DNA of 36,359 nucleotides from Candidatus Firestonebacteria bacterium RIFOXYD2_FULL_39_29 (GCA_001778375.1 MFGV01000024.1:1-36359); one strand, 5' to 3'; counted from the stretch's first letter, positions 107-27,727 are shown. A program made the numbers and translations. The notes: generated from the sequence alone by a model not told the origin.

Positions 107-160
107 CTTCCATTGCTTCACTTACTTTTTTTGCTGTGTTTACTGTTCCTGCTGCACTTA
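107..160 (-). repeat. 18-nt (2 x 9) tandem array after lipoprotein stop
   Basis: Directly after the TAA stop of the lipoprotein gene, the minus strand shows six 9-nt units: TAAGTGCAG, CAGGAACAG, TAAACACAG, CAAAAAAAG, TAAGTGAAG and CAATGGAAG. They also read as three 18-nt units alternating TAA- and CA- starts, each half ending in AG. The array is degenerate but the phase is kept throughout. No U-tailed hairpin is visible in positions 1-160, so no intrinsic terminator is called for the gene. Confidence 0.6.
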
Positions 161-1009
161 TTATTCTGCCGGAGCAGGTGTTGCCGGTTCGGCTGCAGGT
201 ACAGGAGTAGTGTTTTCCGGCACGGAATTAGTTTTTGGCACAGGTGCCGTTTCCGGCTGATTTTGCTGTTTCACTGCTTCTTCTTTTGCTTTTACCAGAG
301 CATCTTTCGCAAGTTGAGAAGCTTTAGCAGCTGATTCTGCGGCCTGTACAAAATTTGCTTTGTCCATCGCATCAGTTGCAGTCTTTATTGCTTCTTCCAC
401 GTTCTTATACATATCAGGAACCAAAGTATCAGCATTAGAGTCTTTTGCTTCCGCAAGAGCTGTCTTGGCTTTTGTTAATTCATCGGTAGCTTTCTCGACA
501 TCTTTATTTGCCTTATTTATGGAAGCCAGTGCTTGCGAAGCAAAGCTTTTCGCAAGTTCATAATTTTTCAACCTGATATTATTTTTCGCATCCCAGATAT
601 AATTAGTAACTTCCTTAATCATCTTACCATAAGTTTTATCCATTCCAACTTCTTTCGCAAGCTGCAAGCTTCTTTCTGCCTCTGCTATTATTCCCTGTAT
701 TTGCCCGGGCAACTCTCTGACATTCTTTGCCGAGTCTCCGGCTTTATTTGCCAAATCAATGGATTTAGAATATTGACCCTTTTCAAGCCATTCTTCTGCT
801 GTAGAAAGGTATGATTTTGCGCTGTTAAACATTTCATAGAGATCTTTAAGTGTAGGCGCTTTTTCTGACAGCTTTATCTCCGCCTTTGCATTATCAATAG
901 CGGCAACCGCCCTGTCATACATAGGCTTATCCGCAGGCTTGATTACTTTTGAACAACCAACAACGGCAATAGCTACTGACACCAACAATACGCTAATTTT
1001 TTTAAACAT
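161..1009 (-). CDS. Helical lipoprotein with three DUF4398-like repeats
   Basis: 282-residue predicted lipoprotein. The signal peptide ends in a lipobox with Cys19 (VVGC), so it should be exported, lipidated and anchored in an envelope membrane. The mature part is almost entirely helical and Ala/Lys/Glu-rich. It contains three similar ~60-residue segments (about 34-95, 108-167 and 180-238), each pairing an 'A..A...l' helix with a helix ending in a [G/K]xY/FxxAxxxAxxA pattern. This resembles the DUF4398 family of unknown function. A Pro/Ala/Thr-rich tail (about 250-282) could be an extended linker. The ATG follows a strong ribosome binding site (CAGGAGGG, 6 nt spacer). The gene stands alone: promoter at 1062-1090 upstream, nfeD terminator beyond that. 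No enzymatic motif is visible; a structural or periplasm-spanning role is only a guess. Confidence 0.75.
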   Translation of the reverse strand: MFKKISVLLVSVAIAVVGCSKVIKPADKPMYDRAVAAIDNAKAEIKLSEKAPTLKDLYEMFNSAKSYLSTAEEWLEKGQYSKSIDLANKAGDSAKNVRELPGQIQGIIAEAERSLQLAKEVGMDKTYGKMIKEVTNYIWDAKNNIRLKNYELAKSFASQALASINKANKDVEKATDELTKAKTALAEAKDSNADTLVPDMYKNVEEAIKTATDAMDKANFVQAAESAAKASQLAKDALVKAKEEAVKQQNQPETAPVPKTNSVPENTTPVPAAEPATPAPAE

Positions 1010-1061
1010 TTTTTACCCTCCTGAAATATTTTCAACTTACCTGAAACTGTTATTTAATATA

Positions 1062-1090
1062 ATTATATACCAAAGTCGCCATTAAAACAA
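1062..1090 (-). promoter_or_regulatory. Sigma70-type promoter for the lipoprotein gene
   Basis: On the minus strand, -35 TTGTTT (1090-1085), 17-nt spacer and -10 TATAAT (1067-1062). The -35 box overlaps the T-rich tail of the nfeD terminator. The predicted start site near 1055 leaves a leader of roughly 45 nt containing the AGGAGG site. Confidence 0.65.
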
Positions 1091-1105
1091 GCCCGAAATC
1101 GGGCT
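1084..1105 (-). terminator. Rho-independent terminator after nfeD
   Basis: On the minus strand a perfect 7-bp stem, AGCCCGA / TCGGGCT, with a 2-nt TT spacer (in practice a 4-nt loop with a 6-bp stem) is followed by TGTTTTAA. It lies about 100 nt past the nfeD stop codon and closes the DUF3467-birA-coaX-nfeD unit. The T-tract is short and interrupted, so efficiency is uncertain. Confidence 0.65.
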
Positions 1106-1205
1106 GATGACACAGATAAGACAGATTTTGGCACAGCCTCGCAAACTCGGAGAGGTTTATAAGCTTAGAATTTGTTTTTGCATTTATTACTCATACTTGG
1201 TGCAC

Positions 1206-2486
1206 TTATACTTCAGACTTTGTACTTTGGGCTGATTTTACAATCAGTTTTATTCCATCAACCGAAACGACCGATATCTTTTCTCCTTTTTCAAGATTCT
1301 GTCCGTCAACTGTCTCAGCACTCCAATCTTCTTTATTTACTATTACTATTCCTGAAGGTTTCATATCGGTTTTTACTTCACCTTTGGCTCCAATAAGAGC
1401 AGCAATCCCTGAAACCGGTTTGCTTTTCAAAGCTGACACTCCGATAGTAATTATAAATACAAAAAAACCGCCGGTAAGAAGTACCATTGTAAAAACCACA
1501 GGCAAAGATATTTTAAAATACGGGGAGAGGGGATTGAAGATTAGAAACGACCCGAGGATAAGAGACAAAAGCCCCGCTATTCCTATCAAACCGTACGAAG
1601 GTGTTTTTATTTCGAGAATAAAAAGCATAAAGGCCAGCAACAGAAAAGCAGCACCGGCAAAGCTTACTGAAATAGAACCCATGGAATAAAGAGAAAGAAT
1701 TATAAAAACCCCGCCGGTAATCCCCGGAACAAAAGTACCAGGAGAGGTAAATTCGAATATAAGGCCAAAAACTCCGAGGATCAGAAGAATATACGCGATA
1801 TTGGGGTCACCTATTACATGAAGAACAACTTCCCAGCCGGACATGCTGATTTTTTTAACTGTCACATTTCTTAATTTTAGCTTCACCTCTCCTTTTAAGC
1901 GTTTAAGGGTTTTACCGTCAAGTTTTAGCATAAGATCATCTACGGTATCTGAAATAGTATCCGCCGCATTAAGTTTAACAGCTTCTGTTTCTGTAATAGA
2001 AACACTTTTTCTCACAGCCTCTTCAGCCCATACCATATTTTTCCCGCTCTTTTCAGCAAGGGATCTGATATAAGCCGCCGCATCATTGGTAATCTTTTCA
2101 GAAACTGTGCCGCCATCAAGGTAAACAGGATGGGAAGCGCCCATGTTTGTCCCCCTGGCCATCGCGACATAGTCAGACGCCATTGCAATAAAGAGCCCCG
2201 CGGAAGCAGCTCTCCCTCCTTTCGGATATATCTGGGTAACTACAGGAACTTTAGAATCTAAAATCTTTTGGACAATTTTCCTCATTGAACTGTCAAGACC
2301 GCCGGGAGTATCCAATTGAATTATTACCAGTTCTGCCTTCAATTCTTCCGCCTGAGAAATCCAATTTTCAACATATGAGGCTGATATCGGATTAACAACT
2401 CCCTTTAATTCAATTACAAATACTTCTCCGGCAAACAGCTGAAATGTCAGCACTGCAAAAATAATAATAATTTTTATTATTCTCAT
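1206..2486 (-). CDS. nfeD: NfeD-family membrane serine protease (ClpP-class)
   Basis: 426-residue full-length NfeD/STOPP-type protein. Residues 1-19 form a signal or first membrane segment. Residues ~21-200 are a ClpP/crotonase-like protease domain, with LDTPGG (58-63), the nucleophile Ser95 in AASAG and the candidate general base Lys131 in SEKITND. Four or five membrane segments follow (about 225-355). The C-terminus (about 365-425) is the OB-fold NfeD domain (GxxGEVKT...GIVIV...VDGQ.LEKGE). Characterised archaeal homologues cut stomatin-like membrane proteins; bacterial members are linked to membrane quality control. Its ATG overlaps the coaX stop (ATGA), so translation is probably coupled. 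No stomatin/SPFH partner is in the window. Last gene of the cofactor operon. Confidence 0.92.
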   Translation of the reverse strand: MRIIKIIIIFAVLTFQLFAGEVFVIELKGVVNPISASYVENWISQAEELKAELVIIQLDTPGGLDSSMRKIVQKILDSKVPVVTQIYPKGGRAASAGLFIAMASDYVAMARGTNMGASHPVYLDGGTVSEKITNDAAAYIRSLAEKSGKNMVWAEEAVRKSVSITETEAVKLNAADTISDTVDDLMLKLDGKTLKRLKGEVKLKLRNVTVKKISMSGWEVVLHVIGDPNIAYILLILGVFGLIFEFTSPGTFVPGITGGVFIILSLYSMGSISVSFAGAAFLLLAFMLFILEIKTPSYGLIGIAGLLSLILGSFLIFNPLSPYFKISLPVVFTMVLLTGGFFVFIITIGVSALKSKPVSGIAALIGAKGEVKTDMKPSGIVIVNKEDWSAETVDGQNLEKGEKISVVSVDGIKLIVKSAQSTKSEV

Positions 2487-3208
2487 TGTTTTCTCCTCTT
2501 TGTATACCCCATTCCATAAAATATAAGATATGGCTCATAAACTGAAATCTCTTTAATATAGGGGGAAAATAGTTTTCCCCATCCGCCTGTAGCAATCACT
2601 TTAAAGGTTTCCCCTGTTTCTTCTCTTACTCTGCGTATCAATCCATTTATCATCTCGACATACCCATAAAACACACCTGCTTTTATACAGTCTTTCGTAT
2701 TTCTCCCTACCACCTTTTTTGCAAAATCTACGGGCACATAAGGAAGCCTTGAAGTTTTTTCGAACAAGTATTTTGAAAACAAGGAGGCTCCGGGACAAAT
2801 AAGTCCCCCTTTAAACTCCCCTTTTTTACTCACCAGATTTATTGTTGTAGCCGTGCCAAAATCAATAACCAGACAGGGAACTCCATATTTTTTTACTGCG
2901 CCAAGAGAAATCAGCAGCCGGTCAATTCCTGCAGTCTTTTTATTTTCATATAAATTTATTACAGGCACATTCGTGTTCAGGATAACAAGAGCTCTTTTTT
3001 TATATTTTTTCACCGCTGCTTTTAGAAGCTCCGGAACTACCGATGCGACAACAATCAATCCGCAATTCTTTTCTGTTAAAACCGAGAGCTTCTTAAATGA
3101 AGAAACCCCGGAGGGAACCCGTTTTAAGGGAACAAAAACTTTTTTTCTAAAAAAACCGGCAACCATAAATGAATTGCCTATGTTTAAATATACTTTTTTA
3201 TGATACAT
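2483..3208 (-). CDS. coaX: Type III pantothenate kinase
   Basis: 241-residue CoaX, the first enzyme of coenzyme A biosynthesis (ATP + pantothenate to 4'-phosphopantothenate); length is normal for the family. Visible ASKHA-fold motifs are IGNS (10-13), GIDRLL, the phosphate-binding DFGTATT, GGLICPG and ATGGWG. The oddity is residue 9: the family has an invariant Asp at the start of motif 1 (DxGNT/S), but the codon here is AAC, giving NIGNS. The Asp residues of GIDR and DFGT are kept. Whether the enzyme is active, or tolerates the change, cannot be told from sequence. The ATG overlaps birA by 11 nt and the stop overlaps nfeD by 4 nt. Confidence 0.9.
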   Translation of the reverse strand: MYHKKVYLNIGNSFMVAGFFRKKVFVPLKRVPSGVSSFKKLSVLTEKNCGLIVVASVVPELLKAAVKKYKKRALVILNTNVPVINLYENKKTAGIDRLLISLGAVKKYGVPCLVIDFGTATTINLVSKKGEFKGGLICPGASLFSKYLFEKTSRLPYVPVDFAKKVVGRNTKDCIKAGVFYGYVEMINGLIRRVREETGETFKVIATGGWGKLFSPYIKEISVYEPYLIFYGMGYTKRRKQ

Positions 3209-4175
3209 CGCCGCTCAGCACTCTCTTTTTCTCCCCTGAACTCAGACGCAAAATCAAGGCACAGTCGTCATCAATATCAAGAGCGATTCCCTCAAAACTC
3301 TCCAGAAGTCCTTTTACCTTGACTTTATTATTTAGAGTAACAGAATGTTCTTTCCACCTTGAAAGAAACGGTTCAAATCCCTCTTTCTTAAAAAGCTCAT
3401 AACCTGTTTCAATATTTTTGAGTATCTCTTTCAGAAGTTTAAGACGTGATACTTCTTTTCCAGCCTCAACAGATAAAGAAGTTGCAGAATTTTTCAGCAA
3501 CCCCTCGAAAGCATTTTCATTTAGATTAACATTGACCCCTATTCCAATCACCTGATAATTAATAACATCCGGACCGGCTTTTATCTCTGTAAGTATGCCG
3601 CATACCTTTTTTCCGTTTACCAGTACATCATTAGGCCACTTTAAACCGGCTTTTAATCCTGTAACCGACTTTATCGCATCAAGCACAGCAAGACCCGAAA
3701 TAAAGGTAAGTTTTGCGGAATGTTGAGGATTTATCTTCGGCTTCAGTATTATTGAAAACCAAAGACCGGAACCGGACGGAGAGATCCATTTTCGACCTAA
3801 CCTTCCTTTTCCTGCAGTCTGCTTTTCGGCAATTACCACTGCTCCTTCAGAAACCTTCCCTTCAGCTAACTTAATTGCAATCTCATTGGTCGAGCCTGCC
3901 TCGTTAAAGCAATAAAGTTCCCGTCCCATATATTCAGTTTCTAATCCATCCCTTATCTCTGCCGGCAATACTTTATCAGGCGAAGAGATCAGAGTATATC
4001 CCAAATGAGTATGACTTTCAATTTTATATCCCTGTTTCATCAAGGCATGCATATGTTTCCATATAGCAGCCCGGGTAACCCCAAACTTTTTACTGAGCTC
4101 CTCACCTGAAATACAATCCGGACAGGAAGATTTAAGTAAAATCAGTATTTGTTCTTCTTTATCCGGTATGTTCAT
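3198..4175 (-). CDS. birA: Bifunctional biotin-protein ligase / biotin repressor
   Basis: 325-residue BirA of the long class. The N-terminal winged helix (about 1-62, including SGEELSKKFGVTRAAIWKHM and a 'GYTL' wing) should bind an operator. The catalytic domain starts at AGSTNE (93-98). It has the biotinyl-AMP loop GKGRLGRKW (122-130; GRGRRGRKW in E. coli) and KWPNDV.....K.CGIL with the key Lys. A small SH3-like C-terminal domain (about 270-325) follows. It biotinylates carrier proteins such as acetyl-CoA carboxylase BCCP and may repress biotin genes; no biotin genes or operator are recognisable here. The start codon overlaps the DUF3467 stop (ATGA). Confidence 0.95.
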   Translation of the reverse strand: MNIPDKEEQILILLKSSCPDCISGEELSKKFGVTRAAIWKHMHALMKQGYKIESHTHLGYTLISSPDKVLPAEIRDGLETEYMGRELYCFNEAGSTNEIAIKLAEGKVSEGAVVIAEKQTAGKGRLGRKWISPSGSGLWFSIILKPKINPQHSAKLTFISGLAVLDAIKSVTGLKAGLKWPNDVLVNGKKVCGILTEIKAGPDVINYQVIGIGVNVNLNENAFEGLLKNSATSLSVEAGKEVSRLKLLKEILKNIETGYELFKKEGFEPFLSRWKEHSVTLNNKVKVKGLLESFEGIALDIDDDCALILRLSSGEKKRVLSGDVS

Positions 4176-4432
4176 ACCGGAATCGGTCCGTGCTTCTCTT
4201 CGTATTTTTTTACATTATCTGTTAACGCCATTAAAAACCTCTTTATATGGGTAGGAGAGGAAATCACTCTTGCCCCCACTTTGTTTTTCTGTTGTTGAGG
4301 AAATACAAAAACAAAATCCATAACAAACTCATTCTCGTTATGAGATACCACTACAAAATTAGAATAGACACCCTTACTGATCTGTTCATCTATTTCTATG
4401 TTTATTTGTTTTCCGTCTTCGTTGTTGAGCAT
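4172..4432 (-). CDS. DUF3467 family protein
   Basis: 86-residue soluble protein matching the small DUF3467 family, whose function is unknown. It shows the family pattern: an N-terminal strand, 'G.Y.N...V.H...EF..DF.F', then 'ARV..SP.H.KRF...L..N...YE...G.I'. The start is fixed by a very good ribosome binding site (AGGAGGGCTTATG). It is the first gene of the birA-coaX-nfeD unit and overlaps birA by 4 nt. I see no confident -10/-35 pair in the 258-nt upstream gap; a weak TATAGA is present, but with poor -35 options. Confidence 0.85.
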   Translation of the reverse strand: MLNNEDGKQINIEIDEQISKGVYSNFVVVSHNENEFVMDFVFVFPQQQKNKVGARVISSPTHIKRFLMALTDNVKKYEEKHGPIPV

Positions 4433-4453
4433 AAGCCCTCCTGATTAAAACAA

Positions 4454-4499
4454 TCGTCTATAAAAGTTCATAACGTCCGTAAAGTCCATTAAAGTTTTA
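4454..4499 (-). repeat. 9-nt-period array upstream of DUF3467
   Basis: Minus-strand units TAAAACTTT, (A) ATGGACTTT, ACGGACGTT, ATGAACTTT and TATAGACGA. The consensus is about ATGGACTTT, with one 1-nt phase slip. On the plus strand it reads as AAAGTCCAT-like units. Related arrays occur at 8772-8816, 10324-10345, 14992-15014 and 27692-27727. Confidence 0.6.
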
Positions 4500-4524
4500 C
4501 ACTAATGTGGTATATTTTACTTTT

Positions 4525-4612
4525 TCCGCCTAGGCGGATTTCGCGAAGCTTTAAGGTCCAATATTTAAACTTCGCTCAACTTGCTTTCTTTTCCGCCAAA
4601 AAGCGTGGCGGA
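4525..4612. repeat. REP-like GC-rich palindromes
   Basis: Two palindromes lie within 90 nt of the gap between the SpoIID and DUF3467 genes. TCCGCCTAGGCGGA (4525-4538) is perfect. TCCGCCA / TGGCGGA (4592-4598 and 4606-4612) encloses a 7-nt loop. Both share the TCCGCC/GGCGGA core and stand out against the AT-rich surroundings. Neither is followed by a T-tract on either strand, so they do not look like intrinsic terminators. The form resembles REP elements. A similar TCCGCC...GGCG block recurs at 10185-10262. Confidence 0.6.
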
Positions 4613-4639
4613 CTGCTCGCCTAAATACTGGCGCGCAGA

Positions 4640-4729
4640 CTATTTCTACTTTCTCTACTTACTGCTCTTACTTCTCCTGCTTCCACTGCTTTATTCGCTT
4701 TTTTTGCTTTCCTTGCTTTCCCTGCTCTC
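4640..4729 (-). repeat. 9-nt tandem array running through a stop codon
   Basis: Ten consecutive 9-nt units on the minus strand, from GAGAGCAGG (4729-4721) through GAAAGCAAG, GAAAGCAAA, AAAAGCGAA, TAAAGCAGT and GGAAGCAGG to TAGAAATAG (4648-4640). The first four are coding and give the charged Ser/Lys/Glu tail of the SpoIID protein. The fifth supplies its TAA stop (4693-4691), and the rest are untranslated. Confidence 0.75.
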
Positions 4730-6856
4730 TTCCGCCGCAACTCCCGAGTAGACCTTTTTAATACTGCAATTAGAGTAATAATGTGTTATTATTTCTATAT
4801 AACTCTTTTTTCTTGCAGCCATTCTCATGGCACCTTCCTGACACATCCCTACACCATGACCCCATCCGCATCCAAAAATAAGATTTTTTTCAACCTTATA
4901 GAAAGAACTCCTGAGACCAGAAAGGGCGCTCCGGCTCCGGTCTAAAAGATATTTTTTTGTACCCATCTGGGACTCTCTGACATAACCGTTTAAATCTCTT
5001 TTAATTATCTTGAAAGTTTTTGTTTCTTCCGGATCTGCCATACGAAACCATCTGAAAACCTCATCATCCGCGCAATAAGACACGGGAGAAAGCTTGATCC
5101 ATCGGTCCAGATTTTCAGGAGTCAAAGGCCAATCCCTATAACATTCTTTTTGCTCTGCCGCTTCAAAATCCCCGACTCCGCAGAGAGTTTCACACTTTTC
5201 ACCTCCCCACACATCACACACATTCGCCGTACGCCCCCCGCAGGTAGAGAAGAAATACGTGGAAACTGCTCCTTTTGTGTTAAAAACCACTTCACCTCTG
5301 GTCAAATCCACAGCTTTTGTCGTACTTGCTTGTTCGGTATGAACCCCGGTATACGCCTGACAATGAACATCCGCGCAAAGATGAAAATCAGTATTTCCCC
5401 CGTTCATTTCTATTTTTTTGTAGATATAACTTCTCGCAACAACTGCCTGGGCTTTTAAAGCTTCGATGTTTGCTCTGGAACCTATTTCAGAGGGTACAAC
5501 ACTATAAAGATATTCTTCCAGATTAACTTCATTTACAAGACGAAAACCCCTGTCCTCAGCAACAATCTTTAATACACCGCGATAGCTCCTGTCTTTATTA
5601 TTGGCCCAAAAATATCCTCTATCCATTGTTACATCAAAAATAGTAAAAGTTGCATCCTTCAATTCCGGCACAAAGTAAAGCGCGGTATCTCTTTTTATCC
5701 AAACTTCTACGGGTTTTGAATCTGCAGAGCCCTTTATATAGATCGATGCCCCTTCCCTTGTAATCTGAAGATCTTCCTCGGGTTCGGCTTTCTTAACTAT
5801 TTTACTGTCATAATAAATGCTATACTTCCCGGCACACTTAAATCTTACAAATTCCACACCGTTTACAATCACCACTTTAAGTACGGGAATACCTTTATCA
5901 TCCCTAATATAATTAACCTTCAAACATTTTGTTTCTTTTCTGTTTTTTTCTTTTGATGCTTCAGTTTTTTTAATATACTCAGAAGCTTTTACTCCGATCT
6001 CTTTAAGTTTTTGCTGCACTTCTTTATTATAAGGCTCGATATAAGAAACTTTCTTATAATTTTCAAAGGCCTCGGCATATCTTTCTTTTTTACTGTATAT
6101 TTCAGCCATTTTAAGATTAGCCTTATAAAAACTATTATCATATTTAACCGTATTCTGATAGCAGGTTAAAGCATTGTCAAGCTCTCCTTCAGCATAGTAA
6201 TAATCAGCCAGTAAAAAATGCGCTTGAGCGAGGCGGATATCATATTCCAGCACTTTTTTATACATTTCCGCGGAATAAATATCCTCTTTCCTTTCATGAT
6301 AGACCAGTCCAAGTCCAAAAGCCGCAAGCATTTTTATTTTTGCCGTATCAGCATCCTGATCCTGCATAGCATCAAGAGTATTAAAAACATTCTCAAGATC
6401 AATCTTGGCTCCGTTAAAATCCTTCATGTAAAACCGGGAGTACCCCATGCTGAGCCGCCAGAAAGGGTCATCTTTTATTTTGAGAGCTGCTTCATAATTC
6501 CTGACAGCATCAGAATAAAAACCGGTGTCTTTGTAAACGGTGGCAAGATTTGCCAAAGCTATCTCGGAACCGGTGTTTTTTATTAAAGAGAGGTATTTAT
6601 CAATAGCCCCTCCAAAATTACCGTTATAATAATCCAGAGTAGCTTCACGCATGCCCTTACCAAACTCATCCTGCGGAGCGGCAGGGACACATAAAGTAAG
6701 ACAGCCAGCATCAGAAGAAACAGCAGGGAGTTGTTCAAATTTTCCGGAAGAAACTCCTTCGCCTTTAGATTTGAAAACTTTAACCGGAGTTGTCCCGCAA
6801 GCGGAAAGAAAAATAAAAGCAGTTAAAACTATTATGCCAAAAAATAAATTTTTCAT
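4691..6856 (-). CDS. TPR-SpoIID/LytB domain lipoprotein
   Basis: 721-residue lipoprotein with its lipobox at Cys20 (LSAC). Residues ~65-290 are tetratricopeptide repeats. A ~120-residue beta-rich linker follows, then a SpoIID/LytB domain (about 405-705). This keeps the signature residues: VPSE with candidate catalytic Glu457, KAQAVVARSY (468-477), the conserved cysteines of CADVHCQAY and STCGGRT, and GWGHGVGMCQEGA (664-676). SpoIID of Bacillus is a lytic transglycosylase acting on denuded glycan strands, so a peptidoglycan-cutting or -binding role is likely. The last residues (ESRESKESKKSE) come from a 9-nt repeat. It follows tonB by 7 nt and so appears to belong to the exbB-exbD-tonB operon. 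The TPR part recalls CpoB of Tol systems, but this is an analogy only. Confidence 0.88.
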   Translation of the reverse strand: MKNLFFGIIVLTAFIFLSACGTTPVKVFKSKGEGVSSGKFEQLPAVSSDAGCLTLCVPAAPQDEFGKGMREATLDYYNGNFGGAIDKYLSLIKNTGSEIALANLATVYKDTGFYSDAVRNYEAALKIKDDPFWRLSMGYSRFYMKDFNGAKIDLENVFNTLDAMQDQDADTAKIKMLAAFGLGLVYHERKEDIYSAEMYKKVLEYDIRLAQAHFLLADYYYAEGELDNALTCYQNTVKYDNSFYKANLKMAEIYSKKERYAEAFENYKKVSYIEPYNKEVQQKLKEIGVKASEYIKKTEASKEKNRKETKCLKVNYIRDDKGIPVLKVVIVNGVEFVRFKCAGKYSIYYDSKIVKKAEPEEDLQITREGASIYIKGSADSKPVEVWIKRDTALYFVPELKDATFTIFDVTMDRGYFWANNKDRSYRGVLKIVAEDRGFRLVNEVNLEEYLYSVVPSEIGSRANIEALKAQAVVARSYIYKKIEMNGGNTDFHLCADVHCQAYTGVHTEQASTTKAVDLTRGEVVFNTKGAVSTYFFSTCGGRTANVCDVWGGEKCETLCGVGDFEAAEQKECYRDWPLTPENLDRWIKLSPVSYCADDEVFRWFRMADPEETKTFKIIKRDLNGYVRESQMGTKKYLLDRSRSALSGLRSSFYKVEKNLIFGCGWGHGVGMCQEGAMRMAARKKSYIEIITHYYSNCSIKKVYSGVAAEESRESKESKKSE

Positions 6857-6863
6857 TAAGAGA

Positions 6864-8008: not shown

Positions 8009-8021
8009 GTATTGCCTCCGG

Positions 8022-8672: not shown

Positions 8673-8718
8673 ATTTCCTCCTATTGAAAAAATGAAGTAA
8701 TTTAGAAATACTGTAATA

Positions 8719-8747
8719 ATTATAGCCAGAAAGGCAGGGTATGTCAA
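8719..8747 (-). promoter_or_regulatory. Perfect consensus sigma70 promoter for exbB operon
   Basis: On the minus strand TTGACA (8747-8742), exactly 17 nt, then TATAAT (8724-8719): a full match in both hexamers and optimal spacing. The expected transcript start near 8712 gives a ~40-nt leader ending in the AGGAGG site of exbB. No repressor site is evident around it. Confidence 0.85.
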
Positions 8748-8771
8748 CCATCAAAAGCCCAAAAATATATA

Positions 8772-8816
8772 CCTAAACCCGTAAAAATCTAAAAGTTCAT
8801 AAAGCCAATAATTCAA
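8772..8816 (-). repeat. 9-nt-period array after the ABC binding-protein stop
   Basis: Starting right after the TAA stop of the substrate-binding protein gene, the minus strand reads TTGAATTAT, TGGCTTTAT, GAACTTTTA, GATTTTTAC and GGGTTTAGG. These are degenerate 9-nt units of the same family as 4454-4499 and 27692-27727. No strong hairpin terminator is visible before the exbB promoter. Confidence 0.5.
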
Positions 8817-10073
8817 TTACTTTTCTAATAATGCATCCACTTTTTTTGCTGCTTCATCCAAAGCTTCCTGCGGAGTAGCTTTTTTTAAAAGGACTTTTTC
8901 TAAGGCTTCTCCTATATAAATTCTTACTTCCTGCCAGCACTTAACTCTGGGATCAGTCACGGCATTATCAAGCTCTTTAATACCGATTAAATCCAAAGGT
9001 TTTTTCTTTAGATGCTCAACCATCACAGGACTTGTAAGCGCTGACTTTCTAATTGGTAAATAGGAGGTTCCCATCGCCCATTTTACATTATTTTCAGAGT
9101 TTGAAAGCCATTTAATAAATTTGTAACAAGCTTCTTCTCTTTTCTGACTATTTTCTTTTTTCGCAAAAATCGCAATATTAGTACCGGCTATCGGAGCAGT
9201 TTTAATCTTACCTGCATATAACGGCGCGATGCCGACAGAAAAAGCTGTTCCAATATCCGATTCAAGATAACTCCGATGCGGGCTTGTAGAAATGAAAGAG
9301 GCCATTCGGCCTGCTTTAAAATCGCCATCAAGGTAATCTTTTGTATATACTGCCACTTTATATTTATTATACAAATCAGTTATGAATTGTAAGGTTTCTC
9401 TTCCTGCCGCATCATTAAAAGTTGATTTTGTTTCACTCTCATTGAAAAAACTTCCCTTATTCATATATAAAAGTATGGCAAATATATCTATATTGGCTCT
9501 AAAACCAAAGCCGTAACGCACAGTTTTTCCGGAAGCATCACGCTTAGTTAACTTTGTACAAACATTTAAGAACTCCGCAACGGTCTTTGGAGGAGTAAGA
9601 CCTTCTTTCTTAAAAAGGGATTCATTGTAATAATAGACATAGATAGATTTGTTAAACGGGAAAGTCCACAGCGTTTTTTCGTAACTATTATTCCGGATAA
9701 AAACAGGATAAATATCTGCTAAATCCTTTTTTCTATCCGGATCTTTTGAAAAGTACTTTTCAACCGGAATTATAGATTTTTCCTCGACAAATCTCGTTGT
9801 CCAATTCTCGTAGACCTGCGAAATGTCCGGCGAATTACCTGCAGCTACAGACGCCAGAAGCTTTTGAAGCAAAACATCATAATTTCCCACATATTGAGGA
9901 GTAATTTTTATATCCGTATTCTCTTTTTCAAAACCTGTAATAAGTTCTTTTAAGACCTTATCCTTTGGATCCGCCATTGCATGCCAGAATGTAAGTTTTA
10001 TTTTATCAGAAGAAGAGCCGCAGCCCGAGAGGAAAACAACCGCAGCAAAAACACCGATTATTATTTTTTTCAC
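8817..10073 (-). CDS. Sugar ABC transporter substrate-binding lipoprotein
   Basis: 418-residue family 1 extracellular solute-binding protein (SBP_bac_1, the maltose/glycerol-phosphate group). The signal peptide has its lipobox at Cys19 (LSGC). The mature protein opens with 'KIKLTFWHAM', then '...L...FEK.N.DIKI......Y...LQKLLASVAAGNSPDI', typical of the family, and includes 'AG..A........ESDIGTAFSVGIAPLYAG'. It should bind a sugar or oligosaccharide at the membrane and deliver it to the two permeases encoded just upstream (10346-12026). The substrate cannot be named. The start is GTG with a GGATGG site 4 nt upstream. It has its own promoter and is separated from the permeases by a 272-nt repeat-bearing gap. 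Confidence 0.92.
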   Translation of the reverse strand: MKKIIIGVFAAVVFLSGCGSSSDKIKLTFWHAMADPKDKVLKELITGFEKENTDIKITPQYVGNYDVLLQKLLASVAAGNSPDISQVYENWTTRFVEEKSIIPVEKYFSKDPDRKKDLADIYPVFIRNNSYEKTLWTFPFNKSIYVYYYNESLFKKEGLTPPKTVAEFLNVCTKLTKRDASGKTVRYGFGFRANIDIFAILLYMNKGSFFNESETKSTFNDAAGRETLQFITDLYNKYKVAVYTKDYLDGDFKAGRMASFISTSPHRSYLESDIGTAFSVGIAPLYAGKIKTAPIAGTNIAIFAKKENSQKREEACYKFIKWLSNSENNVKWAMGTSYLPIRKSALTSPVMVEHLKKKPLDLIGIKELDNAVTDPRVKCWQEVRIYIGEALEKVLLKKATPQEALDEAAKKVDALLEK

Positions 10074-10138
10074 TTTACCATCCTTTTATTAAAAACAATT
10101 TCATTAAATAGAATATTTTACACTATAAGACCAAAACA

Positions 10139-10167: not shown

Positions 10168-10184
10168 GGAAAAATAGAAGCTCG

Positions 10185-10323: not shown

Positions 10324-10345
10324 TTACAAACTTTATGAACTATGA
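10324..10345 (-). repeat. Short 9-nt-period array after permease stop
   Basis: Minus strand TCATAGTTC, ATAAAGTTT, GTAA directly after the TAG stop of the second permease. The units are related to the AAAGTTCAT/AAAGTCCGT family but lie in the opposite orientation to the array at 8772-8816. Confidence 0.4.
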
Positions 10346-11158
10346 CTACTTCATTCCCGTCGTTGCAATTCCTTCTACAAAATATTTCTGGGCGAAGAAG
10401 TAGACTATTATTACGGGTAATGTCGCAAAGAGCGCGGCGGCCATCATCAGATGGTACCGGGTGGCGAATTCAAAGGTGAAATAAGCCAGACCTACAGGAA
10501 GAGTCCGCATGTTTTCACTGTTAGTCATAATAAGAGGCCAAAGGAAAGAATTCCAACTGCCTATCAGCGAGAAAAGCCCGACACTTATGAAAACCGGTTT
10601 CGCTACGGGAAAAAGTATTTTCCAGAGTATCTGCCAGTGCGAACAGCCGTCAATTTGAGCCTGTTCAAAAAGTTCTTTAGGCAGGGACAGGAAGAATTGC
10701 CGCATCAAGAATATTCCAAAAACATTCACAGCCCAGGGAATAATCAAGGCAAAATATGTATCCAGCCATCCGAGGTTTTTCAAGATAATATAATTTGGTA
10801 TTAACGTCACTTCCACAGGTATCATCATGGTCCCAAGAAATATTAAAAAAATAATTCTTTTTCCTTTAAAATCAAACCTGGCGAAGGCATAACCTGCCAA
10901 GGCTGATGTCGCAACCTGTAAAAGAGTAGTTAGAACAGTCACAAACAAGCTATTAAAGAAATAGGCGCCAAAAGGCGCCGCCGAAAAAGCATCTGAAAAG
11001 TTCTTAAAATTTATCTTTGAAGGGAGAAATTTTGGCGGCATAGCAAGGACTTCCTCGGGAAGCTTAAAAGCTGTTACCACCATCCACAAAAAGGGTATTA
11101 CCATTATAAACGCTCCGGCAATAAGAGCGGTATAAATAAAAGTCCGTCTAATTTTCAT
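10346..11158 (-). CDS. Sugar ABC transporter permease (MalG-like)
   Basis: 270-residue inner-membrane permease with six predicted helices. It carries the EAA loop that docks the ATPase ('FEQAQIDGCSHWQILWKILFPVAKP', about 163-187) and the family-typical ending 'YFVEGIATTGMK'. It forms the transport channel with the protein encoded at 11148-12026, whose gene it overlaps by 11 nt. It takes solute from the binding protein at 8817-10073. No ATP-binding subunit gene is in the window, so a shared MsmK/UgpC-type ATPase from elsewhere is presumably used. It is the last gene of the long operon that starts at 25655. Confidence 0.94.
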   Translation of the reverse strand: MKIRRTFIYTALIAGAFIMVIPFLWMVVTAFKLPEEVLAMPPKFLPSKINFKNFSDAFSAAPFGAYFFNSLFVTVLTTLLQVATSALAGYAFARFDFKGKRIIFLIFLGTMMIPVEVTLIPNYIILKNLGWLDTYFALIIPWAVNVFGIFLMRQFFLSLPKELFEQAQIDGCSHWQILWKILFPVAKPVFISVGLFSLIGSWNSFLWPLIMTNSENMRTLPVGLAYFTFEFATRYHLMMAAALFATLPVIIVYFFAQKYFVEGIATTGMK

Positions 11159-14982: not shown

Positions 14983-14991
14983 TTTTTCCTT

Positions 14992-15014
14992 GGAAAGGTT
15001 ACGAACGTTATAAA
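14992..15014 (-). repeat. 9-nt-period array between M20 gene and lnt
   Basis: Minus strand TTTATAACG, TTCGTAACC, TTTCC right after the M20 stop codon. GTTTATAACGTTCGTAACC differs at only a few positions from GTTCATAACGTCCGTAAAG found on the plus strand at 4466-4484. It is the shortest member of the family and could be chance. Confidence 0.35.
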
Positions 15015-16202
15015 CTATTTACTATTTAAAAATTCCAAACTGGTTTCGGCAAGCACGGCTGCGCCTACGGGAAGGGAAGCCTCGTCTATAGTGAATTTTG
15101 GATGATGCAAAGCGCTGGTAATCCCTTTCTTTTTATTCCCGACCCCGAGCCAAATAAAACCGCCCGGAGCGATTTTCGTAAAATAGGAAAAATTTTCCCC
15201 GCCCATGGAAGGCTCTTTCCGTAAAATCACATTTTTTCTGCCAAGCAGCCTCACACCGGCCTTTTCCATAAGGCCAATCATGGTCTCATCATTAGAAAAC
15301 GCCGGATAGCCGTCAAAATATCTCAACTCTGCTTTAGCTCCAAAAGCTTTTGCCGTCAGGGTCACAACTTGTTTCATTCTTGTCTTTATAATTCTTCTGG
15401 TTTGGGCATTTAGAGACCTGGCAGTTCCTTCCATCTTTACAAACGGCGGAATAACATTTGAGGTTTCCCCGGCATTTATCATTGTAACAGTAATAACCGC
15501 GGATTCCAAAGGAGAAACATTCCGGCTTACTATGCTCTGAAGGTTCTGTATAATAGCCGCAGATACAACAATAGAATCAACAGAAGCATGCGGCATCGCG
15601 CCATGCCCGCCCTTACCCGTAACTTTGATCTCAAAAAAATCGGCATTTGCATAAACAGGGCCATAAGTAACACTGATTTTCCCGACTTCACCGGGCGCGT
15701 CAACATGGAGAGCTATCACCGCATCCGGCTTTGGATTTTTCATTGCACCGGCTTTAATAATTTCCTTTGCTCCATCTCTGTTCTTATCCGCTATTTCTTC
15801 AGCCGGCTGGAATATGAACTTAACATTTCCTTTTACTTTGTCTTTCATATTGGAAAGCAGTTTTGCTGCTCCAAGTACACAGGTAGTATGAGCATCATGC
15901 CCGCAAGCATGCATAATGCCCTTATTTTTAGAAGCAAAAGAAACTCCGGTTTCCTCGTAAACAGGCAGAGCGTCAATATCCGCTCTCAAGGCTATTGTCT
16001 TTCCCTTTCTTTTTCCCTTTAGAAGTCCGACCACACCGGTCGCCATAACCACAAAAGGGATTCCCAGACTCCGAAGCTCTCTTTGAATTATTTTAGAGGT
16101 CTTATATTCTTTGAAACCAAGCTCCGGTGCCAGATGGAGTTCTCTTCTGATTTTTACAAGATACAATCCGAGTTTTTTTGCCTCAAGATACATATCCGTC
16201 AT
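15015..16202 (-). CDS. M20 family amidohydrolase
   Basis: 395-residue metal-dependent amidohydrolase of the M20D group (hippurate hydrolase / N-acyl-amino-acid amidohydrolase / IAA-amino acid hydrolase type). Motifs: 'HLAPELGFKEYKTS', 'ALRADIDALP', 'MHACGHDAHTT' (metal-binding Cys/His/Asp/His), 'FQPAEE' (catalytic and metal Glu), 'GHGAMPHA' in the dimerisation/lid domain and 'GGENFSYF' near the C-terminus. It removes an acyl group from an N-acyl amino acid or similar amide; the substrate is unknown. I prefer the ATG at 16202, preceded by GAAGGCGG, over an upstream TTG (16265) that would overlap the DUF2723 gene. It sits between DUF2723 and lnt in the polysaccharide operon. Confidence 0.9.
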   Translation of the reverse strand: MTDMYLEAKKLGLYLVKIRRELHLAPELGFKEYKTSKIIQRELRSLGIPFVVMATGVVGLLKGKRKGKTIALRADIDALPVYEETGVSFASKNKGIMHACGHDAHTTCVLGAAKLLSNMKDKVKGNVKFIFQPAEEIADKNRDGAKEIIKAGAMKNPKPDAVIALHVDAPGEVGKISVTYGPVYANADFFEIKVTGKGGHGAMPHASVDSIVVSAAIIQNLQSIVSRNVSPLESAVITVTMINAGETSNVIPPFVKMEGTARSLNAQTRRIIKTRMKQVVTLTAKAFGAKAELRYFDGYPAFSNDETMIGLMEKAGVRLLGRKNVILRKEPSMGGENFSYFTKIAPGGFIWLGVGNKKKGITSALHHPKFTIDEASLPVGAAVLAETSLEFLNSK

Positions 16203-16218
16203 TTTAATCCGCCTTCTC

Positions 16219-18207
16219 TCACCGGGCAACCACACCGGCTCTATATTTTCTGACTTCTTCCTCAAGATATTTGGACTCCGGGTCAGAGGGAACCATTAAT
16301 AAATATTTCTCCCAGTACTCTACGGCCTTATCTTTTCTTCCGAGAGCTCCATTATAAACTATACCCAGATTTTTATAGGGAGACGCAAATGCCGGGTCAA
16401 TTTTGACAGCTTCTTCATACTCATGAAGCGCCCAATCATACCTGCGGTTAAAATCATAAGCCCACCCCTGATTAAATCTGGCCTTTGAATATATTGTAAC
16501 AATTTCCGCCTCAAAGGAATTCGGCTCATATCTTCCGATAACAGCATCTTTTAATTCAAAATTTTTCCATATGATATCGTTCTCCGCCTTCTTCTCCTCT
16601 ATCCGAATTACACCGGCCGGCAGCTTATTGGGATCTACATTACCCGGAATTTTAATCAAAACGCGGAGGAGTCCCTGCCCGATCATTATATATTCCTTAT
16701 CCAAACTCTGATCTCTCGGACCTGTTACATATATTTTATGATGGTCATAGTTTGCTGCTACAAAAGCCGAAATGGGATTAGCCCCTCCGTCATACATTTT
16801 AAAAGGTATATCCAGGGTCTTTTCCTGTTCACGTTTTTGCTCGCAATACCATGGATACGTCATCTTTTCCTGATCAATGACAATAACGTCCTGCCTGTGT
16901 TTTTCCACCATCTGATGGTAATCTATCCCCATCGAAAGTGTATCACCGCTTACAATAAGTATTGCCCCGGGCGGATAGCTCTTTAGCATATTACCGGTAA
17001 AATTATATAATAAGTGATTATCCGATTTGTTAACTTTTGAGTAGTTAAATCCTGCAAGCACAAAAACCAGAGGGATACATATAAATACCGCTATATTCTT
17101 ATTTGCTTTTATTTTTTCTCCGATCCACACTATACCTGCCGCAACGAAAACCGCGAATACTAAAAACGAAAATATATACAAACGCTGGATAACATTTATA
17201 ACAACATGATCCTGGGTATAACCCATAAAAGATATAAATATTCCGCTGGTGGAAATATAGGCAACGAGAAACATCCAATAATATTTTCTGATATATTTTA
17301 AACCCGTAAAGATACCGGTAATCCCGAGTAAAATTCCCACAGGCGTAAGATTCCTCAGAGCTGAGGCCAGATACAAAGAATACTGGCCATATTTCATATC
17401 TTGAAAATGCGAAAAATTGATTGTCGGTTTAGGGTAATCCCCTCTTCTGACCATGTGAATGAATTTTTCAATAGTCACAGGATCATCCCAGTTTAGAGGA
17501 GGTCTTCTTGAAGCGGCAATAAATAAAAATAAATACGGTAAAAGACCGGCAACAAAAAGAATTGAAGCAATAAACCAGTTAAAACCTCTGAGTTTAACAC
17601 TATTCTGATACAGAAACAGAGCGAAAGCCGGAATCAAAAATAATACAGTCTGATGATGCGTTAAACTAAGCCCCAGTATAAAAAAGAAAAGATAGAGAAT
17701 TTTGTTATTTGCCGTCTCTTCCCACTTTATCAATATAAAGAAAAGAAGGAACACAAAGAAATTATTCAGAGCAAAAACCTCAGCTACAATAGAGTACTCC
17801 CAAATAAGTTTGGTAACAGCAAAAAAAGATACTGTAACAATTGAAACTAAATCATTTTTTATCAGTTTTTTTAGAATTTCAAAACATAATACAAACGACA
17901 GCAAGGAGAACAACATTGAGAAAATATTAACTCTGTACGCAATATTAAACAAGGGAATATAAGTAAACAAATTTCCCAGCATGGTATAAAGCGGATAACC
18001 CGGCGGATGAGCAACCCCAAGCACATAAGGTGAAACCACCATCTCACTGCTGTCACCTGTCGCCGTTATCGTAGTTGCCAGGGTCAGCATGTAAAGAATT
18101 GCTATTCCGATAAATACCAGATAGTACATCAAATGAGGCTTAAAGACAAATTTCCGGGGCTCAAGACCGGAATAATTCAATTCCTTATTCATTACCTGAT
18201 CTATCAT
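16219..18207 (-). CDS. DUF2723 GT-C-like membrane protein with C-terminal TPR
   Basis: 662 residues. About a dozen membrane helices (roughly 28-375) open with the DUF2723 signature 'TGDSSEMVVSPYVLGVAHPPGYPLY' (about 50-74), where the acidic pair is typical of GT-C enzymes. A soluble periplasmic part and a C-terminal TPR segment (about 575-650) follow. DUF2723 includes eukaryotic TMEM260, an O-mannosyltransferase, so transfer of a lipid-linked sugar to protein or glycan is a reasonable inference; bacterial members are poorly studied. The ATG overlaps the preceding glycosyltransferase stop (ATGA) with GAGAGG upstream. Its place after O-antigen genes supports a glycosylation role. Confidence 0.85.
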   Translation of the reverse strand: MIDQVMNKELNYSGLEPRKFVFKPHLMYYLVFIGIAILYMLTLATTITATGDSSEMVVSPYVLGVAHPPGYPLYTMLGNLFTYIPLFNIAYRVNIFSMLFSLLSFVLCFEILKKLIKNDLVSIVTVSFFAVTKLIWEYSIVAEVFALNNFFVFLLFFILIKWEETANNKILYLFFFILGLSLTHHQTVLFLIPAFALFLYQNSVKLRGFNWFIASILFVAGLLPYLFLFIAASRRPPLNWDDPVTIEKFIHMVRRGDYPKPTINFSHFQDMKYGQYSLYLASALRNLTPVGILLGITGIFTGLKYIRKYYWMFLVAYISTSGIFISFMGYTQDHVVINVIQRLYIFSFLVFAVFVAAGIVWIGEKIKANKNIAVFICIPLVFVLAGFNYSKVNKSDNHLLYNFTGNMLKSYPPGAILIVSGDTLSMGIDYHQMVEKHRQDVIVIDQEKMTYPWYCEQKREQEKTLDIPFKMYDGGANPISAFVAANYDHHKIYVTGPRDQSLDKEYIMIGQGLLRVLIKIPGNVDPNKLPAGVIRIEEKKAENDIIWKNFELKDAVIGRYEPNSFEAEIVTIYSKARFNQGWAYDFNRRYDWALHEYEEAVKIDPAFASPYKNLGIVYNGALGRKDKAVEYWEKYLLMVPSDPESKYLEEEVRKYRAGVVAR

Positions 18208-24250: not shown

Positions 24251-25655
24251 ATATAAATGCCAGGAAGATCCAGAAGACAGCTATAACTCTCGGATCAAAC
24301 CATAGATTTTCAAAACAACCGGCAATCAGAAGCGCCAGAAGACCGACAAGGAGCACTTTAACCTCTTTTCCGGGAGAAAAAAACTTTCTAAAAAAAACAA
24401 CCAAGAGCCAGAGAAAAGCCGCAATGCCAAAAAGTCCCAGTTCGGCAGCGGTATTTAAAAAAGTATTATGCGCGTCTTCCATAATAAACGGTGCGGCAGG
24501 GGTTTTATACTTTTCATAGGTAGTATAGTAGTTATTAAGACCTATTCCTGTCAAAGGATAATCTTTAAACATTAAGATCGCACTCTTCCAAGCCTCTATT
24601 CTCGATACTACATTTACATCATTTTCTGTAGTTCCTTTAAGCCGCTCCAAAATCTGGACGTGAAACAATAAAAAAAGAGCCGTGATCACCACTGCAGAAA
24701 CCATGATTATCTTCTTATTATTCCATGCAACTATTATTAAAAGCCCTATAAAACCAATTAATAGTCCGAGCCAGACGGCACGCGAATAGGTTAGAATAAC
24801 AGCAAAAACAAGGACCAAAAAAGAAATCAGATGATATCCGGTCAACCAGGCAGTCTTTTTTTTCAAAGATATCCATAGAGCCGGATTAATAAAAACCGCC
24901 GGTAAAAGCGCGGCGGCAAGCAGATTTGGATGCTGCATTGTAGAAACCAGGCGGGTATAAACCTCGTTATTCTGCCCGATAAAATTATGTATACCCGGAT
25001 TGCCTATAAAACCCATTGGAGTACCGGTAAAGTATTGGAAGAAACCCAGAAGTGCAGTTATAGAAGCGCCGCAAACATAAGAATAACCCAGGCCTTTTAA
25101 TGTATTCTTGTCTTCCATAAACAATTCCTTTATAAAATATAATATTATTATCCCGGTAAGAATAGATTTGAACATGAAAATGCTTCTTTCCGGATCCCCG
25201 GCATTCACAAAGGAAAGCAAGCAGGCAATAATAAAAAGAAATACCGGAAACTCAAAAAAAGCAACAACCTGTTTTTTATTCTGCTTTAGCCGTCCCAGCT
25301 GTTTCCATAAGAAGTAGGAGACCGTACCTGCCAGCAGAAAATAAGTGGAAATATTAAAGAACAAAAATGTTTTAGAATGAAACGATATGTCAGGTGAGCC
25401 GGTAAAAATCATCACAAATGAATAAAACGCCATAATAATAGAGATAAGAGGAACAACAAGCAAAAGATCCTTTATCTTAAATGTTTTCTTTTTATAGCTG
25501 CGTATATAAAAGTATATTTCCACCAAAATAACAGCAAAAACGAAAAGATCGGGCCAGCTTACTGTTTTAAGACGGTAACTGCTCCAGGGAAGAGGCAGTA
25601 AAGTAATAAAAAATACCATTAAATATGCAAGATTTTTGAGTATCTTTACTCTCAT
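24219..25655 (-). CDS. O-antigen ligase / polymerase family protein
   Basis: 478-residue membrane protein with about 12 helices and a periplasmic loop. The Wzy_C/WaaL region includes 'VILTYSRAVWLGLLIGFIGLLI' and 'MFKDYPLTGIGLNNYYTTYE......EDAHNTFLNTAAELGLFGI', matching the family's conserved Arg and His. It either polymerises O-units (Wzy) or ligates the polymer to a lipid core or protein (WaaL/PglL); sequence alone does not decide. I prefer the ATG at 25655 because an in-frame upstream TTG (25694) forms the -35 box of a strong promoter. In that case the mRNA is nearly leaderless. First gene of the polysaccharide operon. Confidence 0.88.
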   Translation of the reverse strand: MRVKILKNLAYLMVFFITLLPLPWSSYRLKTVSWPDLFVFAVILVEIYFYIRSYKKKTFKIKDLLLVVPLISIIMAFYSFVMIFTGSPDISFHSKTFLFFNISTYFLLAGTVSYFLWKQLGRLKQNKKQVVAFFEFPVFLFIIACLLSFVNAGDPERSIFMFKSILTGIIILYFIKELFMEDKNTLKGLGYSYVCGASITALLGFFQYFTGTPMGFIGNPGIHNFIGQNNEVYTRLVSTMQHPNLLAAALLPAVFINPALWISLKKKTAWLTGYHLISFLVLVFAVILTYSRAVWLGLLIGFIGLLIIVAWNNKKIIMVSAVVITALFLLFHVQILERLKGTTENDVNVVSRIEAWKSAILMFKDYPLTGIGLNNYYTTYEKYKTPAAPFIMEDAHNTFLNTAAELGLFGIAAFLWLLVVFFRKFFSPGKEVKVLLVGLLALLIAGCFENLWFDPRVIAVFWIFLAFIYGTEKVYSKK

Positions 25656-25665
25656 TATGGAAGTT

Positions 25666-25694
25666 ATTATATCAGATAGGCCGTTTTTTTTCAA
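25666..25694 (-). promoter_or_regulatory. Near-consensus promoter for polysaccharide operon
   Basis: Minus strand TTGAAA (25694-25689), 17-nt spacer beginning with an A-run, TATAAT (25671-25666). Only 10 nt separate the -10 box from the ATG at 25655, so transcription would start about 3-5 nt before the start codon. Alternatively, translation starts at the TTG with GGGAG 7 nt upstream, from an earlier promoter that is not visible. Confidence 0.7.
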
Positions 25695-25747
25695 TTAAGA
25701 ACTCCCGACAAAAAGAGTCCCTCAGAAGAGAAGACCTTTGGCCCAAT

Positions 25748-27655
25748 CTATTCTTTTATATTCTCTAACTTCTTATTCATTCGTTTTACAGCATTGTCGG
25801 CTTCTTTTGAGTTATCTATTATATGCGGGGTAAGGAAAAGCATCAGTTCGGTCTTTTCTTTAATTTGATCCTGATATTTGAATAAAAGACCGAGTAAGGG
25901 AATATCCCCAAGAATTGGTATTTTGTTCTCGGTAGTGGAAACGGATTCTGTAATAATACCGCCGAGTATCATGGTCTCTCCGTCCTTTACCCTGACAGAG
26001 GTAGAGGCTTGCCTGTTATCCACCACCGGAGCGCCGAAAAAAGTTGTCTGTGTTATTTTGCTCACAACCTGGGAAATATCCATAGTGATAAAATCATCCG
26101 AATTGATATGCGGCGTTACGGTTAGGATCGTGCCGACTGTATTATAGTTATAAGTATATATAACCTGCCCGCTGGAGGTCGTCTGGCTTCCGGTCAGGTT
26201 CGGGACCTGTTGTCCGACATTTACGACAGCTTTTTGATTATCAAGCGTGAGTATCCTTGGCGCGGCTTTGACATCCACCTTGGTCTGCGACATCAAATTA
26301 TGTAAGAATAGCTTTGTATTACCCTGCAGTAAGGTGTAATTAAAGGTCGGTGTTTTACCGGCAAGACCGAGATTAGAATTTAATACTCCTGAAGAATTAT
26401 CCAGTCTTCTTCCGCCAAAATCAAGAGGCGCAGAATCTATATTGAATTCCACTCCCAGCTGAAACTCAGAATTAAGGGTCACATCAACGACCAGAACCTC
26501 AACGAGCACCTGACGCTGCATCTGATCAAGTTGTTCAATAGTGCTTTTGATCAAAGCCAGGGTTTGAGGGGCGGCAACTGCTACGACAGAATTGCTTTTT
26601 GTTTCTGCAACTATAGTAATATTTTCCTCATCCGGCGCCGGAATACCCCTGTTACCGTATACCTGCTGCCTCTGCGACTGCTGTTGCTGTGCTGTCGTGG
26701 GAGTGACTCCGAGGAAAACCGAATTTAAAACATCACTTAATGTTTTTGAATCAGCATATTTAAGCCGAAAAACAGAAACGCCTGTTGCTCTTATTGAAGC
26801 CTTTTCAAGGTTATCAATTATCTTAAGTAAACTCTTTATATTCGACAGACTATTTATAACAATTATTGAATTTGCGGCTTCATTGCTCATAACCAGACCC
26901 CAGCTCGGAATTAGAGCTGCCAAGTCGCTTCTGAGTTTTGTCGCCGTAAGGTTCTTTAGAAATATTATCTGAGAAACCACCTCGTCTCCGTCCGTAGCCA
27001 GTTCGGGATCATTATTTACTACCACCGGTATATTCAATTGCCTTATACCGTCTATCGGAACTATCTTTAAAACATCCCCGACAAAAAGAGAACAATAACC
27101 TTTTCCCATAAGTACAGAATCAAGTATCTTAAAAGCTTGTTCCAGAGTGATAGAGCCTTTGCTGTAAACAGTAACATTTCCGGAAGCCGGTCCGATCTTT
27201 TTCGAGGTACTTCTTTTTTCCTGCTGGGCCTGTCCGCCGTAATATGGTTGAGCTTGAGCTCTGGCCGATTGAGTTTGCGGATCTGTCTGTAAATCCGCGG
27301 CTACTTCTGCGCCAACATTCACTATAGTAAGTCCGCTTGCTTTTGTAAGAAAATCAAAGAGTTTAACGATATCTTCATCTTTAAAGGAGAACTGAACCTG
27401 TTTATTCCAATCAATACCGGAAAGCGCGGAATACTTTTTGTAAGGCACATTAGGTATTATCACCGGAGCACCCGACATAAGCGTTGTTTCCATAGAGTGT
27501 TCCTTCGTTACCGGAGGCACCATACTGACAAGTTCTGTTGAGACCGTCACTTTACTCCGGGCATCTTCCGGAATTGATCTTATTATATCCTTATTTGCCG
27601 CACAAGACGTAAAAAACAGGGCAACAAATAACCAGGCAAAATTTCGTTTCATCAT
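25748..27655 (-). CDS. gspD: Type II secretion system secretin (GspD/PilQ family), lipidated
   Basis: 635-residue outer-membrane secretin. The signal peptide ends in a lipobox-like FTSC (Cys18), so the protein is probably a lipoprotein. An N0/STN-like domain lies at about 80-185 ('QVQFSFKDEDIVKLFDFLTKASGLTIVNV'), followed by N1-N3 domains with 'IIFLKNLTATKLRSDL' and 'VFRLKYADSKTLSDVLNSVF'. The secretin core (about 385-620) has 'VEVLVVDVTLNSEFQLGVEF', 'APRILTLDNQKAVVNVGQQVP', 'VKDGETMILGGII' and 'KIPILGDIPLLGLLF'. It forms the exit channel. It is the last gene of the secretion operon, 99 nt after the M/C-like gene; the start follows AAGGGGGAG. Lipidation could replace a separate pilotin. Confidence 0.93.
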   Translation of the reverse strand: MMKRNFAWLFVALFFTSCAANKDIIRSIPEDARSKVTVSTELVSMVPPVTKEHSMETTLMSGAPVIIPNVPYKKYSALSGIDWNKQVQFSFKDEDIVKLFDFLTKASGLTIVNVGAEVAADLQTDPQTQSARAQAQPYYGGQAQQEKRSTSKKIGPASGNVTVYSKGSITLEQAFKILDSVLMGKGYCSLFVGDVLKIVPIDGIRQLNIPVVVNNDPELATDGDEVVSQIIFLKNLTATKLRSDLAALIPSWGLVMSNEAANSIIVINSLSNIKSLLKIIDNLEKASIRATGVSVFRLKYADSKTLSDVLNSVFLGVTPTTAQQQQSQRQQVYGNRGIPAPDEENITIVAETKSNSVVAVAAPQTLALIKSTIEQLDQMQRQVLVEVLVVDVTLNSEFQLGVEFNIDSAPLDFGGRRLDNSSGVLNSNLGLAGKTPTFNYTLLQGNTKLFLHNLMSQTKVDVKAAPRILTLDNQKAVVNVGQQVPNLTGSQTTSSGQVIYTYNYNTVGTILTVTPHINSDDFITMDISQVVSKITQTTFFGAPVVDNRQASTSVRVKDGETMILGGIITESVSTTENKIPILGDIPLLGLLFKYQDQIKEKTELMLFLTPHIIDNSKEADNAVKRMNKKLENIKE

Positions 27656-27691
27656 AACTCCCCCTTATTTAACAGCACTTTCACAGACAGA

Positions 27692-27727
27692 TGACATTAA
27701 AAACATCCAAAAGTCCGTAAAGTTTTA
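27692..27727 (-). repeat. 9-nt-period array before gspD
   Basis: Minus-strand units TAAAACTTT, ACGGACTTT, TGGATGTTT and TTAATGTCA in the gap between the M/C-like gene and gspD. TAAAACTTT and ACGGACTTT closely match units of the array at 4454-4499. Confidence 0.55.

What the first reader, a model, noticed from the sequence alone, without database searches (positions are those of the whole stretch)
107..27727. Degenerate 9-nt-period arrays sit next to stop codons in many intergenic gaps
Seen directly: arrays at 107-160, 4454-4499, 4640-4729, 8772-8816, 10324-10345, 14992-15014 and 27692-27727. Most begin within a few nt of a stop codon, and nearly every operon gap over ~30 nt has one. At least two sequence types exist (GAAGCAAGN-like and ATGGACTTT-like), yet the 9-nt period is shared. 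A period that is a multiple of three keeps the reading frame when a stop is lost. Inference: they grow by slippage at gene 3' ends and may act in mRNA 3' stability, or may be neutral. I know of no named element class of this form.
Basis: seen in the sequence. Interest (0 to 1): 0.62.

Follow-up and report, generated by a model that had tools for sequence, protein, structure and literature searches.

The report
Mobile short-repeat hairpins between genes
In this uncultivated bacterium (Candidatus Firestonebacteria) many gaps between genes are filled, starting right after the stop codon, by small mobile-looking DNA modules built from degenerate 7- or 9-letter repeats, often arranged as long hairpins, and different species carry different repeat families in the same gap.

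Summary
The 9-nt arrays are real. In 316 intergenic gaps of the same genome, 9-nt self-matching occurs in 32 gaps against 0.7 in shuffled DNA, and 7-nt in 42 against 0.4. Almost no other period is enriched apart from 8 nt (9 gaps) and 10 nt (6). Arrays start within 15 nt of a stop codon about four times more often than chance. Seven-nt arrays are at least as common as 9-nt ones, so 'a multiple of three' cannot be the general explanation. Most families are not simple slippage tracts. They are the arms of dispersed inverted repeats: X-array after the stop, its reverse complement before the next start. One 9-nt family (AAGCAAGNN) is sense-only and carries embedded hairpin modules found in tens of copies. 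Families are clade-restricted and patchy, and a close streamlined relative lacks them. Orthologous gaps hold different families in different species, or nothing, down to 4-nt gene overlaps. Best reading: REP/MITE/STRR-like proliferating intergenic modules, new families with an unusual build. The mobiliser is unknown, and a 3'-end RNA function is plausible but untested.

The parts
107..160 (-). class A 9-nt array (unit [AC]AG[CT]AANNN), directly after the stop codon of the gene 161-1009(-)
   Evidence: (exact A-pattern hits C24:114-145, 123-154)
4639..4729 (-). class A 9-nt array, ten units; its first 39 nt code for the C-terminal tail and the stop of the SpoIID/TPR gene 4691-6856(-)
   Evidence: in G001 the orthologous gene end and gap differ
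4590..4633 (-). module F (two G+C hairpins), dispersed repeat, sense orientation
   Evidence: 8 copies in 747 kb, 7 sense / 0 antisense in same-direction gaps
4525..4580 (-). module E, 56 nt, two hairpins (GCGAAG..CTTCGC and TCCGC..GCGGA), dispersed repeat
4454..4499 (-). class B-like 9-nt array (ACTTTAATGG-type), 3' arm orientation, just upstream of the start of 4172-4432(-)
8772..8816 (-). weak class B 9-nt array starting at the stop of the solute-binding protein gene 8817-10073(-)
   Evidence: p 0.07 alone
10324..10345 (-). weak 9-nt array after the stop of permease gene 10346-11158(-)
   Evidence: p 0.06 alone; the orthologous G001 gap holds a 7-nt family D array instead
14992..15014 (-). 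weak 9-nt array after the stop of the M20 peptidase gene 15015-16265(-)
   Evidence: p 0.035
27692..27727 (-). 9-nt array in the gap downstream of 27755-28747(-)
   Evidence: p 0.0075
   Evidence: other Firestonebacteria carry a 9-nt class B palindrome in the same gap
36098..36280 (-). fragment of a Y1/TnpA_REP-type transposase gene at the contig end (possible mobiliser class, link not shown)

Best explanation
The arrays are pieces of several families of small, non-coding, proliferating intergenic modules in Candidatus Firestonebacteria. Most families (7-nt C, D, G and 9-nt B) are inverted repeats of about 60-200 nt. A degenerate tandem array begins right after the upstream stop codon, followed by a spacer that is conserved in family C, and then the reverse-complement array before the next ribosome-binding site. 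Transcribed, they form a long imperfect hairpin. One family (A, AAGCAAGNN) is not palindromic. It lies on the sense strand across or after the stop codon and hosts the hairpin modules E and F. The modules spread by a mobile-element-like process (inferred; mobiliser unknown, a Y1/REP-type transposase is one candidate) and then expand or shrink by repeat units (inferred). They survive almost only between genes, so in dense operons they come to lie between stop and next start. Shown: periods, families, dispersion, inverted arms, polarity, empty or differently occupied orthologous gaps. Inferred: transposition, unit slippage, and any effect on mRNA 3' ends or translation.
For: Period spectrum: lag 7 in 42 and lag 9 in 32 of 316 gaps against 0.4 and 0.7 shuffled; coding pieces 0 and 2 of 442. 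Inverted arms: C7 units sense 23 in the stop half and 0 in the start half, antisense 7 and 47; both arms in 14 gaps where 1.3 are expected (p 3e-16). 7-nt gaps fold better than gaps without arrays, median z -2.84 vs -1.33, p 4e-4. Dispersed copies: C core 23 copies in 747 kb, all intergenic, 86 BLAST matches in the genome; E 28 copies, all intergenic. Orthologous gaps: of 62 shared gene pairs with G002, 7 have a gap of at least 60 nt here and under 30 nt there, none the reverse; examples L027:15070-15192 and L189:13183-13418 are 4-nt gene overlaps in G002. L227:11469-11674 holds family A+B here, other families in L029, L034 and L035, and gene overlaps in L030-L033. Upstream C-termini and stops are mostly intact. 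Clade restriction: B in 9 of 9 genomes of the order (23-162 hits each; a single hit in G002), in 0 of 36 others in the phylum; A, within the order, only in G000 and G001; G patchy.
Against: No target-site duplication or excision product was established. No mobiliser is linked: the Y1 transposase genes are not flanked by E or C. Units are too degenerate to date insertions. Some empty sites in G002 could be deletions during genome reduction rather than ancestral absence. Class A arrays do not fit the palindromic scheme and fold no better than other gaps. Genes were called with a home-made codon-usage caller, so some starts and short genes are wrong.
Confidence: 0.7

Rival explanations
1. Neutral slippage: short gene-end sequences are amplified in place by replication slippage, decay by mutation, and are tolerated only after stop codons.
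For: Arrays are degenerate and start at stops. Class A arrays run into coding ends and replace C-terminal residues; in G002 the unexpanded end GGAAAGTACAGGAAAAAAGTATAG already resembles the unit.
Against: The same unit motifs recur at tens of loci with fixed and free positions. Arms come as inverted pairs. Conserved cores and hairpin modules are dispersed. Families are clade-specific. Slippage alone gives no reason for periods 7 and 9 while 6, 10, 11 and 12 are nearly absent.
Confidence: 0.12
2. Selected 3'-UTR or intercistronic RNA elements: the hairpins and sense arrays protect upstream mRNA ends, attenuate transcription or act on terminating ribosomes, as E. coli REPs do, so selection keeps some hairpin in a gap whichever repeat family supplies it.
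For: Sense bias of modules: E 20:4 here and 30:7 in G001, C 14:1, F 7:0 and 6:0, A 18 vs 3 gaps. Stop adjacency within 15 nt. E stem change A-U to G-C kept paired in 7 copies, with one exception. REPs within 15 nt of stops affect translation, and REPs stabilise mRNA (PMC12306157).
Against: The streamlined relative G002 lacks them at the same operon junctions. Genes are 90-95% co-oriented locally, so the sense bias could reflect replication strand instead. Only one E pair covaries. No RNA data.
Confidence: 0.15
3. Single-strand transposition by Y1 (REP-type) transposases spreads the hairpin modules, with insertion on one replication strand giving the orientation bias. (A more specific form of the best explanation.)
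For: Y1_Tnp genes occur in all eight array-bearing genomes of the order and not in G002, which lacks arrays. E has a two-hairpin REP-like build. Orientation bias.
Against: One independent loss only, and G002 is reduced overall. Y1 loci here are not flanked by E or C. G009 has five Y1 genes and no B arrays. Both E orientations occur within 8 kb of one contig.
Confidence: 0.2

Closest known systems
Heptameric intergenic tandem repeats: cyanobacterial STRRs, GGGAATC repeats of Xanthomonas/Nostoc (PMC4692102), TAACTGA repeats of Beggiatoaceae (PMC4679880)
   Same: degenerate short tandem units, intergenic, period 7, several families per genome, some inverted, forward units supply stop codons
   Different: here 7-nt and 9-nt families coexist at similar frequency; arrays form the arms of inverted-repeat elements; position is biased to the upstream stop, whereas in the Beggiatoa genome BOGUAY TAACTGA lies mostly just upstream of start codons
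Small dispersed repeats (SDR) in cyanobacteria (Elhai et al. 2008; cited through PMC3116915, details from memory)
   Same: short hairpin modules embedded in tandem-repeat tracts, as E and F sit inside class A arrays
   Different: unrelated sequence, E is 56 nt, host tracts have period 9; paper not held, so not compared directly
REP/BIME elements and REPINs with RAYT (PMC12306157, PMC3116915)
   Same: high-copy intergenic hairpins, often within 15 nt of a stop codon, mosaic arrangement, Y1 transposases present in the genomes
   Different: no RAYT gene flanked by the element here; arms are tandem arrays rather than a 20-40 nt palindrome; GTAG/CGTC tag not tested
BrickBuilt MITE of Porphyromonas gingivalis (PMC4596501)
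   Same: miniature inverted-repeat element whose body is a tandem repeat
   Different: 23-nt unit and short terminal inverted repeats; here the inverted repeats themselves are the 7- or 9-nt arrays

Membership tests
Heptameric STRR-type intergenic repeats | degenerate tandem units of 7 nt, intergenic, many loci | tested here: met
   42 of 316 gaps vs 0.4 shuffled, none in 442 coding pieces; holds for the 7-nt families only, not for the 9-nt arrays of the finding
Heptameric STRR-type intergenic repeats | period of 7 nt (for the arrays named in the finding) | tested here: not met
   listed arrays have best lag 9
REP/BIME | high-copy intergenic palindromic module | tested here: met
   E: 28 copies in 747 kb, intergenic, two hairpins
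REP/BIME | associated RAYT (Y1) gene flanked by the repeats | tested here: not met
   five Y1 loci; no E or C module found in the flanks read
MITE | terminal inverted repeats, short, non-coding, multicopy | tested here: met
   family C: both arms in 14 gaps vs 1.3 expected; 23 copies with a conserved core
MITE | target-site duplication and parent transposon with matching ends | not tested
   ends too degenerate to delimit; no strain-level empty sites; no search for matching insertion sequences was made
Simple slippage microsatellite | in-place amplification, unrelated loci have unrelated units | tested here: not met
   same families and modules at tens of loci; clade-specific

The most novel reading that the evidence does not exclude
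A distinct class of intercistronic element in which the repeat period (7 or 9 nt) and the position between stop codon and next start are what is conserved, while the sequence family is freely swapped between species at the same gap. This would imply a dedicated period-generating or period-reading mechanism, for example a repeat-binding protein or an RNA/ssDNA-templated insertion process acting at gene 3' ends.
Probability: 0.15. Interest if true: 0.8.

Novelty: new variant of a known kind. Interest (0 to 1): 0.52.

Why it matters
About a third of the 100-250 nt gaps of this genome carry such arrays, so they shape operon spacing, gene ends and probably transcripts in a whole bacterial lineage. 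The swap of families at the same junction, and the near-complete absence in a sister species, make an old question about bacterial short repeats (parasite, slippage or 3'-end function) directly testable by comparative genomics. The strong preference for periods 7 and 9 is unexplained.

Tried and rejected
Rfam found nothing in the window. The Y1 transposase genes were checked as parents of E or C: their flanks carry no copies. Replication strand versus transcription as the cause of the sense bias could not be separated, because 90-95% of genes in each piece share one strand. The 'multiple of three' argument was tested by stop-crossing and is only marginal for class A. Class A and non-A 9-nt gaps show no excess folding. 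An nhmmer search with the C profile found 0 copies in the G001 sample, but BLAST over the whole genome found 43 matches, so that negative reflects sampling or the profile and was discarded.

Full report
Organism. The window is contig 24 of a 3.0 Mb genome. Its type II secretion ATPase is 94% identical to that of Candidatus Firestonebacteria RIFOXYA2_FULL_40_8. The genes are ordinary housekeeping, transport, polysaccharide and pilus/secretion genes. Close relatives are G001 and G002 (same genus), G003 and G004 (same family), and G005-G008 (same order).
Noticed in passing
window 36098-36280: Fragment of a Y1 (REP-associated type) transposase gene at the contig end; five Y1 loci in the genome, none in the array-free sister G002.
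   Followed up: partly
L196:734-868, L194:13568-15210, L014:2240-2423, L010:18504-18857: An 8-nt family (GGATGNTT) also starts 0-15 nt after stop codons; lag 8 is the third most enriched basic period.
   Followed up: partly
L028:8667-8797, L027:13908-14178, L187:4769-5020, L191:11230-11467: A short dispersed motif TATCAGTGGAATC sits close to downstream genes in several gaps.
   Followed up: no
window 4454-4525 (-), L227:11469-11674, L187:1790-2103: The 3' arms of class B arrays are preceded by a shared module resembling TATACCACATTAATGTAAAAC.
   Followed up: no
window 1179-1220: Imperfect 22-nt tandem repeat across the stop codon of the NfeD gene 1206-2486(-).
   Followed up: no
G002 (same genus, 1.7 Mb): A close relative with little more than half the genome size lacks almost all these repeats and has mostly short or overlapping operon junctions: a natural control for repeat load.
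   Followed up: partly
G032, G020 (other families of the phylum): The loose class A 9-nt pattern gives 28 and 22 hits there, almost all on one strand; probably a few long tracts or repeat genes.
   Followed up: no
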